Positions 25,298 through 28,353 of a stretch of 34,034 nucleotides of DNA are shown piece by piece. This stretch comes from Rhodoferax sp. Lineage in GTDB: Bacteria; Pseudomonadota; Gammaproteobacteria; Burkholderiales; Burkholderiaceae_C. The first letter of the stretch is position 1, and each line of letters begins with the position of its first letter. Both the position numbers and the translations under genes were made by a program. The DNA lies in NCBI RefSeq assembly GCF_018063565.1, contig NZ_JAGPBB010000044.1:1-34034 (forward strand). Direction: 5' to 3'. The notes under the pieces were generated by a model. The model saw nothing but the letters and a program-made list of their open reading frames with translations. It did no database searches and was not told where the DNA came from.

Positions 25298-26557
25298 TTA
25301 CACGACCCCGGCGCGCTCCAGCATCGCGTGCAGCAGCACGTTGCAGCCGGCTGTGATGTGCTCGGGGGTGGCGGATTCGATCTCGTTGTGGCTGATGCCG
25401 TTGAGGCAGGGGATAAAGATCATGCCAGTGGGGGCGAGTTTGGCCATGTACACCGCGTCGTGCCCGGCGCCGCTGACCACCGGCATGTTCGAGTAACCCA
25501 ACTTTTGCGCTGCCCTTGCCACCGCACCCTTGCAATCGTCGTGAAAAGCCTGCGCCGGGTAGCTGGAGACCAGGTCAATCTGGATGCCCAGACCCGTTTT
25601 GGTGCTCAGGCTGGCCGCAAATGCCTTGACCTCGTCGGCCATCTGGTCCACCAACGCGTCGGTGGCGTTGCGCAGGTCGATGCTGAACTTGACGCGCCCG
25701 GGGATCACGTTGCGGCTGTTCGGAAACACCTGCACCATGCCGACCGTGCCGCGCCCATGCGGCGCGTGACGCAGCGCGGTGGTCACCACCTCTTGCATGA
25801 TGTGGGTGGCGACTTGCATCGCATCCTTGCGCAGCGCCATGGGCGTGGGGCCGGCGTGGGCTTCCATGCCGGTGACGGTGCAGTCAAACCAGCGGATGCC
25901 CAGCACGCCCTGCACGACGCCGATGGTCACGTCGTTGTCTTCAAGCACCGGGCCTTGTTCGATGTGGGTTTCGAAAAACGCGCCAATCGGGTGGTCACCG
26001 GGTTCCTCCGAACCGACGTAGCCGATGCGTTTGAGTTCTTCACCCACCGATTTGCCGTCGATGTCTTTGGCCGCGTAGGCGTGCTCCAGGGTGAAGGCTT
26101 TCGCAAACACGCCCGAGCCCATCATCACCGGCACAAAGCGTGAGCCTTCTTCGTTGGTCCAGAAGCTGACCTCAACCGGGGCTTCGGTCTCAATGCCGTG
26201 GTCGTTGAGCGTGCGCATCACTTCCAGGCCAGCGAGCACGCCGTAGTTGCCGTCAAACTTGCCGCCGGTGGGTTGGGTGTCGACGTGGCTGCCGGTGACG
26301 ATGGGCGGTAACGCGTTGTTTCTGCCTGCGCGGCGCATGAAGCCGTTGCCGATTTTGTCAATGGTCACAGTCAGACCGGCTTCGCGGCCCCACTTTGTGA
26401 CCAGATCACGGCCCTGTTTGTCGAGGTCGGTCAGCGTCAGGCGGCAGACACCGCCTTTGGGGGTGGCACCGATTTTGGCGAGTTCCATAAGGCTGTCCCA
26501 CAGGCGCTGGCCGTTGATGCGCAGGGTGCTGAGGTCGGTGGTTGTTGTTGTCGTCAT
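25298..26557 (-). CDS. Beta-ureidopropionase / N-carbamoyl-amino-acid hydrolase (M20 family)
   Basis: A 419-residue cytosolic amidohydrolase of the HyuC/AmaB group. Di-metal ligands are visible: H91 in GSHVDTQPTGG, D102 in KFDGNYGVLAG, E136/E137 in WTNEEGSRF, H198 in ETHIEQGPVLE and the late His in GISHNEIES. The dimerisation lid carries GMEAHAGPTPM. In this operon it should hydrolyse N-carbamoyl-beta-alanine (or beta-aminoisobutyrate) to the beta-amino acid, CO2 and ammonia, the last step of reductive pyrimidine breakdown. ATG 26557 has AGGAG 8 nt upstream; the frame stays open to 26758 across hairpin DNA and that extension is spurious. It is separated from the dihydropyrimidinase gene by 350 bp of structured DNA. 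Confidence 0.9.
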   Translation of the reverse strand: MTTTTTTDLSTLRINGQRLWDSLMELAKIGATPKGGVCRLTLTDLDKQGRDLVTKWGREAGLTVTIDKIGNGFMRRAGRNNALPPIVTGSHVDTQPTGGKFDGNYGVLAGLEVMRTLNDHGIETEAPVEVSFWTNEEGSRFVPVMMGSGVFAKAFTLEHAYAAKDIDGKSVGEELKRIGYVGSEEPGDHPIGAFFETHIEQGPVLEDNDVTIGVVQGVLGIRWFDCTVTGMEAHAGPTPMALRKDAMQVATHIMQEVVTTALRHAPHGRGTVGMVQVFPNSRNVIPGRVKFSIDLRNATDALVDQMADEVKAFAASLSTKTGLGIQIDLVSSYPAQAFHDDCKGAVARAAQKLGYSNMPVVSGAGHDAVYMAKLAPTGMIFIPCLNGISHNEIESATPEHITAGCNVLLHAMLERAGVV

Positions 26558-26598
26558 GTTGGGCTCCTGGAAGTCATGTGTTTTTGGGCTGGCTACCA

Positions 26599-26672
26599 GC
26601 CGGGGTGGGGAATGCCGGGGGACCTCATACTGGGGTACCAGAAATCGGCCCCCCGGCATTCCCCACCCCGGC
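26599..26672. repeat. Long hairpin A of an inverted pair
   Basis: Perfect 23-bp stem: arm 26599-26621 pairs with 26650-26672. The loop is 28 nt and contains its own mini-palindrome CTGGGGTACCAG (26630-26641). The 28 nt at 26623-26650 recur, reverse-complemented and without a mismatch, at 26788-26815 in hairpin B. A 6-bp hairpin GGCTGG-cta-CCAGCC (26587-26601) overlaps its left foot. Confidence 0.9.
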
Positions 26673-26683
26673 AGAAGCGATAA

Positions 26684-26712
26684 CGGAGTTTTGCGAATGA
26701 ACGAAAACTCCG
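26684..26712. repeat. Middle hairpin between the long pair
   Basis: CGGAGTTTT (26684-26692) pairs with AAAACTCCG (26704-26712) as a perfect 9-bp stem with an 11-nt loop. It sits in the 93-bp spacer between hairpins A and B. The function is unknown. Confidence 0.7.
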
Positions 26713-26765
26713 ACGGATCTGTATGGGCAATTTGGCTGTTTTCTTGCGCACCAACCAAGGTTCAA

Positions 26766-26839
26766 GGCTGGGCGGGCAATGGCCGGGGGCCGATTTCTGG
26801 TACCCCAGTATGAGGCCCCCGGCCATTGCCTTCCCAGCC
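26766..26839. repeat. Long hairpin B of an inverted pair
   Basis: Arm 26766-26791 pairs with 26814-26839 over 26 positions, with one 2-nt mismatch. The loop is 22 nt, and loop plus flanks (26788-26815) are the exact reverse complement of 26623-26650 in hairpin A. Compared with A in the same orientation, the stem bases differ at several positions on both arms in a compensating way (GGGGAATGCC with GGCATTCCCC in A; GGCAATGGCC with GGCCATTGCC in B). Confidence 0.9.

Positions 26840-26907: not shown

Positions 26908-28353
<1,446 letters not shown>

What the first reader, a model, noticed from the sequence alone, without database searches (positions are those of the whole stretch)
26587..26839. 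Inverted pair of long hairpins with an identical 28-nt loop core and compensating stem changes
Two hairpins (26599-26672, perfect 23-bp stem; 26766-26839, 24 of 26 pairs) lie head-to-head between hydA and the ureidopropionase gene. Their loop cores (26623-26650 and 26788-26815) are exact reverse complements, 28 of 28, and each carries a GGTACC-centred mini-palindrome. The stems differ at several bases, yet both arms changed together, so pairing is kept. A constant loop on a co-varying stem points to selection on a folded DNA or RNA form: a REP/BIME-like element moved by a RAYT transposase, a MITE, or an RNA that a protein reads through its loop. On the hydA transcript both hairpins lie between the two cistrons, so they could also set their expression ratio.
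Basis: partly seen in the sequence, partly recalled or inferred. Interest (0 to 1): 0.72.

Follow-up and report, generated by a model that had tools for sequence, protein, structure and literature searches.

The report
REP-like mobile hairpin repeats in Burkholderiaceae
The two hairpins are copies of a dispersed, apparently mobile DNA palindrome found in many Burkholderiaceae, in which nearly every stem base can change as long as pairing is kept while one small internal loop stays the same, so some cell factor probably reads that loop on one folded strand.

Summary
The hairpins (26599-26672, read on the minus strand; 26766-26839, plus strand) are two of eight strong copies in the host genome, a Rhodoferax relative. 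The family occurs in 41 of 200 genomes of the host's family; a less sensitive order-wide search found 6 of 399, all in that family. The constant part is not the loop but an internal loop, CGATTT/YATGAG; the apical hairpin and the 26-bp outer stem vary with compensating changes. G-T pairs far exceed A-C on one strand (168:18), in both members of pairs, so one folded strand is selected. Neighbouring copies are inverted in one sense (102 of 108), favour gene 3' ends, and lie in frame in uvrA-like, leuS, nuoG-like and hrpA-like genes. This is REP-like behaviour, but without a GTAG/CGTC tag or a copy near 30 Y1-transposase loci. Best reading: a REP-like non-autonomous element whose folded strand is read by an unknown enzyme. 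It may be the published "BRE" repeat, whose sequences I could not see.

The parts
26599..26672 (-). hairpin unit H1; functional strand is the minus strand; 26 outer pairs, internal loop, apical 4-bp stem-loop
   Evidence: model hit 88.6 bits, E 1.4e-16; alignment
26642..26646 (-). 5' half of the conserved internal loop of H1 (GATTT on the minus strand)
   Evidence: conserved across the family
26630..26641 (-). apical stem-loop of H1 (CTGG-TACC-CCAG); variable across the family with pairing usually kept
26625..26629 (-). 3' half of the conserved internal loop of H1 (TATGA on the minus strand)
26673..26765 (.). 93-nt spacer between the hairpins; holds a small 9-bp hairpin (26684-26692 with 26704-26712)
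   Evidence: spacer length varies within the family (32-227 nt between unit ends)
26766..26839 (+). hairpin unit H2; functional strand is the plus strand
   Evidence: model hit 83.5 bits, E 2.1e-15
26792..26796 (+). 5' half of the internal loop of H2 (GATTT)
26797..26808 (+). apical stem-loop of H2
26809..26813 (+). 3' half of the internal loop of H2 (TATGA)
26908..28353 (-). upstream gene: amidohydrolase (dihydropyrimidinase-like, hydA)
   Evidence: Pfam PF01979; the gene name is my reading
25298..26557 (-). downstream gene: M20 peptidase-like amidohydrolase (ureidopropionase-like)
   Evidence: Pfam PF01546; the gene name is my reading

Best explanation
Each hairpin is one unit of a REP-like, non-autonomous palindromic element that has spread through the Burkholderiaceae. 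Shown by computation: the unit is a 26-28 bp outer stem, a fixed internal loop (C-GATTT / YATGA-G) and a variable apical stem-loop. It is constrained as ONE folded strand, the one carrying GATTT..ATGAG. It occurs singly or as an inverted pair, nearly always in one arrangement (minus-strand unit left, plus-strand unit right). It accumulates at gene 3' ends and can sit in frame inside coding genes. Inferred: an enzyme not yet identified binds that folded strand, most likely single-stranded DNA exposed at replication, and reads the internal loop much as TnpA-REP needs the bulge of E. coli REPs, copying or moving units to new sites; stems are free to drift because only pairing matters. In the window the pair lies between two cistrons of a pyrimidine-degradation cluster. 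Any effect on that cluster would be secondary.
For: Copies and spread: 8 strong sites in the own genome; 41 of 200 family genomes, 35 of 141 genera; 28 aligned composite copies in one Polaromonas MAG. Presence/absence at the window's own site: 11 of 26 orthologous intergenic regions have a hairpin; of the 15 without, six are only 25-69 bp long. Insertion: a 28-residue stretch containing one hairpin in an otherwise alignable leucyl-tRNA synthetase; open-frame copies in uvrA-like genes of nine genomes. Folded single strand: 94.1% of cells paired against 57.3% shuffled, covariation score 0.904 against 0.181 shuffled and at most 0.184 when slid; G-T:A-C 168:18, 77 of 110 units with more G-T and 4 with more A-C, the same in left (129:4) and right (126:10) pair members and in sense (29:5) and antisense (55:3) singles. 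Arrangement: 102 of 108 neighbouring units are (-,+), none (+,-). 3'-end preference: convergent:divergent 37:16 against 10:64 in hairpin-free gaps. REP parallels from print: 3'-end location, dimers, insertions in uvrA, RNA helicase and tRNA synthetase genes (PMC3733652, section 15 read); strand-specific reading of folded single-stranded REP, with a required bulge in the E. coli case (PMC8266576, passages).
Against: No enzyme was found. No target duplication was defined, and no systematic search for one was run. Single-stranded DNA and RNA are not separated: G-T in DNA and G-U in RNA look the same. Replication-orientation bias is uneven: 11 of 12 singles in G482, 8 of 10 in G475, but 1 of 5 in G009. 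About seven of the Polaromonas composites share their left flanks and about five their right flanks, so some copies may have spread with a larger repeat. A hairpin pair also lies at the hydA-M20 site in another genus (L305), which could mean retention for a function rather than chance landing.
Confidence: 0.6

Rival explanations
1. It is a functional RNA element: a protein reads the internal loop GAUUU/YAUGA in a transcript (3' UTR, small RNA or antisense RNA), and the stems covary because the RNA must fold.
For: Covariation and G-U tolerance are classic RNA signs; 3'-end location; the same site occupied in another genus (L305); the authors of PMC3733652 draw the same inference from G-T pairs in REPs (passages).
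Against: Single copies between co-oriented genes are more often antisense (40 of 56, p = 0.0018; a cruder ORF list gave 21 to 13); in inverted pairs one unit is always in the non-functional sense; copies lie inside coding genes; no Rfam match reaches a gathering score.
Confidence: 0.2
2. It is the already published Beta-proteobacterial repeat element (BRE) of Bordetella, Polaromonas and Rhodoferax, described in 2011 as a ~90-bp repeat. This concerns its name and is compatible with the best explanation.
For: Similar size (75-91 bp in Bordetella), high G+C, host genera (Polaromonas, Rhodoferax, Acidovorax, Delftia), intergenic sites, several copies per site, some wholly inside coding sequence (PMC3110155, section 14 read).
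Against: BRE is described as tandem with few or no bases between copies, not as inverted; its orientations are said not to follow the replication fork; it was collected at over 70% identity across genera, whereas the arms here are almost free; one BRE is reported outside the family (Azoarcus). No BRE sequence was readable in the text held.
Confidence: 0.45
3. A REP/BIME moved by the resident RAYT (Y1 transposase).
For: 53 of 60 genus genomes have a Y1_Tnp match; overall REP-like behaviour.
Against: 0 of 30 Y1_Tnp loci hold the hairpin at E <= 1; in 7 of 14 loci inspected another palindrome of the type AATTGGGGTCAGATTCCAATT stands near the RAYT-like gene; no GTAG tag; genomes without a core match also carry a Y1_Tnp gene.
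Confidence: 0.07
4. A double-stranded cruciform or protein-binding site, or a bidirectional transcription terminator.
For: Palindromic; convergent sites enriched.
Against: A cruciform would show G-T and A-C equally, but the ratio is about 9 to 1; 0 of 313 units have TTTT after the stem on the functional strand and 8 of 313 on the other; copies inside open frames.
Confidence: 0.05
5. Covariation arises because one arm is copied from the other (template switching or hairpin-primed synthesis), not by selection.
For: Five of 20 closest unit pairs that differ at one stem position already differ on both sides.
Against: Close copies differ mostly on one side, most often by a Watson-Crick to G-T step (12 of 20 at one difference), and the two-sided share rises from 0.15-0.26 at one to four differences to 0.43-0.49 at five and six, as stepwise compensation predicts; arm copying would not make G-T exceed A-C.
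Confidence: 0.1

Closest known systems
REP / BIME elements (GTAG- and CGTC-tagged palindromes)
   Same: Small palindromes, folded single strand, inverted dimers, location at gene 3' ends and between convergent genes, insertions inside uvrA, RNA helicase and tRNA synthetase genes (PMC3733652, section 15 and passages)
   Different: Unit of about 70-82 nt with a 26-28 bp stem (REPs 20-50 nt, stems 5-13 bp); conserved internal loop instead of a tag; no associated RAYT found; arms almost without sequence constraint
Beta-proteobacterial repeat element, BRE (Hot et al. 2011, PMC3110155)
   Same: Size, G+C content, host genera, intergenic and intragenic sites (section 14)
   Different: Described as a tandem sequence repeat; the passages I read state no hairpin, strand or covariation for it; identity not tested because its sequences were not readable
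Rickettsia palindromic elements (RPE)
   Same: Palindromes inserted in frame into unrelated protein genes (as summarised in PMC10969869, passages)
   Different: RPEs are about 150 bp in Rickettsia; no shared motif was tested
attC sites of integrons
   Same: Strand-specific folded single strand, sequence-variable but structure-conserved (recalled, from no call)
   Different: attC conserves boxes at the foot (recalled); here the foot is free and a motif near the top is fixed; no integrase was sought

Membership tests
REP element (GTAG or CGTC super-family) | Unpaired GTAG or CGTC tag at the foot | tested here: not met
   GTAG in 18 of 138 and CGTC in 18 of 138 non-redundant units in a 29-nt window at the 5' foot (7 and 6 at the 3' foot); the commonest tetramers reach only 48 and 53 of 138
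REP element (GTAG or CGTC super-family) | Palindrome of 20-50 nt, stem 5-13 bp | tested here: not met
   Units of about 70-82 nt with 26-28 paired positions
REP element (GTAG or CGTC super-family) | Dispersed, at 3' ends, often as inverted dimers | tested here: met
RAYT-mobilised REPtron | Palindromes flank the RAYT gene | tested here: not met
   0 of 30 Y1_Tnp loci fetched, about 1.5 kb each side where the contig allows
BRE | Sequence match to the published BRE | not testable with these tools
   Sequences only in a figure and a supplement; text read
MITE (DDE type) | Terminal inverted repeats of an autonomous element and target duplication | tested here: inconclusive
   Flanks of 27 Polaromonas composites compared with each other and 8 proteins between or beside distant units scanned, no transposase; target duplications were not searched systematically
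Known Rfam RNA family | Match above the curated gathering score | tested here: not met
   801 bases of the window at E <= 5 (41 matches) and nine relative loci at E <= 0.05 (2 matches): none reached its gathering score
Intrinsic terminator | T-tract after the stem | tested here: not met
   0 of 313 units with TTTT on the functional strand, 8 of 313 on the other

The most novel reading that the evidence does not exclude
A third kind of REP-like element, recognised not by a tag or a fixed stem but by one internal loop in an otherwise sequence-free hairpin, spread by a dedicated single-strand DNA enzyme that is not RAYT, with a nearly forced inverted-pair arrangement and a replication-dependent orientation.
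Probability: 0.33. Interest if true: 0.7.

Novelty: new variant of a known kind. Interest (0 to 1): 0.55.

Why it matters
It gives a clean natural experiment on nucleic-acid recognition: about 300 distinct hairpins in which nearly everything but one internal loop varies and pairing is kept, with a strand signature that shows which strand folds. It also shows palindromes lying in frame in uvrA-like, leuS, nuoG-like and hrpA-like genes of freshwater and other Burkholderiaceae.

Tried and rejected
Considered and rejected, with the test: RAYT mobilisation; intrinsic terminator; cruciform; arm-copying as the main cause of covariation; strand-biased mutation as the cause of the G-T excess (it holds in sense and antisense units alike); known Rfam family (the microRNA-type matches are far below gathering scores and look like long-hairpin artefacts); plasmid or phage carriage of the window pair (no match; the Polaromonas composite was searched in plasmids only, no match); viral contigs (0 for the 21-mer; 2 for an 18-mer, neither with the stem).

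An 'autonomous copy' was sought where two units lie 1-2 kb apart. The 8 proteins scanned between or beside them were a BglII-type endonuclease and a DNA methylase (L121), metallo-beta-lactamase fold proteins, a photolyase-domain protein, a transporter, a TetR regulator and one without a family; no transposase. Most 'inside an ORF' calls from my first ORF list had no Pfam domain or lay before the domain start; only those with Pfam domains in the same frame are counted.

Dropped or capped: 27 of 220 units with fewer than 18 of 28 pairs were left out of the column statistics (193 kept, 133 non-redundant), partly because their apical loop has another length. A1 holds 36 of the 51 units listed; 14 with another apical length and one with an odd apical sequence were left out, and all had been taken with at least 15 of 20 outer pairs, so its paired percentage is somewhat favoured; most candidates pass such a cut (193 of 220). 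L194 matches the 21-mer with 1 mismatch but does not form the stem. In one search, 11 sites over 400 nt from a gene were set aside, and sites at contig ends without a gene on both sides were skipped uncounted; identical flanks were merged but orthologous sites of related genomes were not, so its p-values are optimistic. The units were found with the core as bait, so core conservation there is partly by construction; units found by orthologous site and by the model are freer of that, though the model also carries the core. One search gave 30 loci of 48 matching genomes (89 searched); 26 had both anchors. One search scored 24 and only 12 candidates per genome with strict filters, so both are lower bounds. 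Gene contexts rest on my own codon-usage gene caller, not on annotation. A notebook line says the other palindrome stands at most RAYT loci; the count is 7 of 14.

Full report
OBSERVATION. The hairpins stand at 26599-26672 and 26766-26839 as described, on either side of a 93-nt spacer, between an amidohydrolase gene (26908-28353, minus) and an M20 amidohydrolase gene (25298-26557, minus) of what looks like a reductive pyrimidine-degradation cluster (Pfam; gene names are my reading of the domains). They fold far better than shuffles (z -8.2 to -9.0).

FAMILY. The 21-nt core at up to 3 mismatches occurs 8 times in the own genome and never as the reversed control. It was found in 15 of 40 genomes, all 15 among the 24 of the same genus, and at up to 1 mismatch in 4 of 300 genomes of the order, one of which does not form the stem. 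A capped scan of named genomes returned 118 stretches, mostly titled Rhodoferax, Limnohabitans, Polaromonas or unnamed Comamonadaceae and Burkholderiales. A covariance model (R1) found 8 strong and 1 weak site in the own genome, 41 of 200 genomes and 35 of 141 genera of the family at E <= 0.01, and 6 of 399 genomes of the order at E <= 1e-4 with fewer candidates scored, all six in the same family. So presence is patchy and, as far as these searches reach, confined to one family of bacteria.

ANATOMY. In 133 non-redundant units about 25 central columns are nearly invariant, two of them with an alternative base, while most stem columns carry little sequence information; yet stem pairs 4-27 stay paired in 84 to 98% of units. 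On the 36-row alignment A1, 94.1% of cells pair against 57.3% in shuffles, with 373 two-sided changes against 99.1 (sd 8.6); sliding the partner by one column drops pairing to 41-48%. Pairs 2 and 3 outside the internal loop are the exception, often an A-G / G-A step. Orthologous intergenic sites and model hits, which were not picked with the exact core, show that the apical stem-loop also changes: CTGGTACCCCAG, GTGGTACTCCAC, CTGTGTACCCACAG, CTGCTCGCAG, CTGTTTCAGCAGAAACAG and others; 62 apical sequences among 289 units, though four close variants make up 208 of the 289. What remains is C-GATTT on the 5' side and YATGA-G on the 3' side: an internal loop. On paper it can form tandem G-A mismatches; that is inference.

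WHICH STRAND. On the strand that carries GATTT..ATGAG, G-T pairs number 168 against 18 A-C (110 non-redundant units; 77 units with more G-T, 4 with more A-C, p = 1.4e-18; a unit was admitted on Watson-Crick pairs only, so admission was blind to strand). The same holds for left (129:4) and right (126:10) members of pairs and for sense (29:5) and antisense (55:3) singles. So strand-biased mutation by transcription or replication does not explain it, and a cruciform does not either: one folded strand is selected, and in a pair the two functional strands are opposite. Close copies differ mostly on one side, often by a step to G-T, with two-sided changes rising with distance, as stepwise selection predicts.

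ARRANGEMENT AND PLACE. Of 108 neighbouring unit pairs within 300 nt, 102 are (-,+), 3 (+,+), 3 (-,-), none (+,-). Around units, convergent, co-directional and divergent gene neighbours number 37, 111 and 16 (singles and pairs together), against 10, 93 and 64 in hairpin-free gaps of 120 bp or more (Fisher p = 7e-11 for convergent against divergent). Single units between co-oriented genes have the functional strand antisense 40 times and sense 16 times (p = 0.0018); a cruder ORF list had given 21 and 13. In closed genomes with dnaA near base 1, and taking the terminus at half the length, singles have the functional strand on the leading-strand template in 11 of 12 (G482), 8 of 10 (G475) and 1 of 5 (G009): 20 of 27 in all, p = 0.019. 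In G482 singles between convergent genes follow this too, 5 of 6, and one single between head-on genes follows replication rather than the genes. Some G475 hits lie close together in similar gene clusters, so they are not all independent.

MOBILITY. In one Polaromonas MAG 28 composites (unit, spacer, unit; about 155 nt core to core) were aligned; by eye the middle of the spacer lies in one direction in about 9 and the other in about 11. Many flanks are unrelated, but about seven copies share left flanks and about five right flanks. At the window's own site 11 of 26 orthologous intergenic regions with both anchors (own genome included) have a hairpin, one or two, with several apical types; of the 15 without, six are only 25-69 bp long and the rest hold other sequence. 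In another genus a pair lies between an amidohydrolase and an M20 gene as well (L305). Units sit in open frames of uvrA-like genes in nine genomes (L187, L297, L301, L306, L307, L308, L311, L317, L329), in leuS (L292, where 28 residues with the hairpin have no counterpart in a solved homologue), in a nuoG-like gene (L322) and in an hrpA-like gene (L325).

COMPARISON WITH PRINT. I read section 15, the abstract and passages of PMC3733652: REPs favour unidirectional and convergent gaps, form dimers, and are reported inside uvrA, RNA helicase and tRNA synthetase genes, which is the same habit. From passages of PMC8266576: TnpA-REP acts on the folded single strand in a strand-specific way and, in E. 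coli, needs the REP bulge. Membership fails on the tag, on size, and on RAYT linkage. I read section 14 and passages of PMC3110155: BRE matches in size, hosts and habit, but its sequences were not readable, so identity is open. Searches for prior description: (20 of 743 listed); beyond BRE no listed title or abstract start that I saw names this structure. Only openly licensed papers were searched.

VERDICT. A REP-like element, probably mobile, read through one internal loop on one folded strand. Shown: family, structure, strand, arrangement, placement, in-frame copies. Inferred: mobility as the cause of spread, single-stranded DNA as the substrate, and an unknown enzyme. Not shown: any effect on the operon in the window.

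Noticed in passing
L062, L063, L066, L072 (upstream) and L061, L063, L065, L071 (downstream) of Y1_Tnp genes: Palindromes of the type AATTGGGGTCAGATTCCAATT or its complement stand near the genus' RAYT-like gene in 7 of 14 loci inspected; they look like that RAYT's own REP.
   Followed up: partly
L306 1842-8831 (also L307, L308, L311): A double-length UvrA-like protein (open frames of 1826-2329 aa, two of them cut by the fetched stretch or contig) holds up to three hairpin pairs in frame, translated as ..SSYCEQKSS.. and ..DDFCSQHEE..
   Followed up: partly
L121 5494-7430: A BglII-type restriction endonuclease and a DNA methylase lie between two oppositely oriented hairpins about 1.8 kb apart.
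   Followed up: partly
L201-L228 (Polaromonas MAG, G366): The spacer between the hairpins is itself palindromic (GGTAGCGC..GCGCTACC) and its middle occurs in both directions relative to the hairpins.
   Followed up: partly
flanks of L206, L208, L218, L222, L223: A second dispersed repeat (TAGCTGCTCCCGCGGGTTTTTATTGG-like) lies near several copies in the same genome.
   Followed up: no
L198 7092-8900: Truncated half-hairpins follow two intact pairs in a Limnohabitans genome, suggesting local duplication or deletion.
   Followed up: no
L151 49-126: A contig labelled Singulisphaera carries a Limnohabitans-type hairpin; probably a mis-binned contig.
   Followed up: no
L305 1363-1578: In another genus a hairpin pair also lies between an amidohydrolase and an M20 gene, with different stems and apical loops.
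   Followed up: partly
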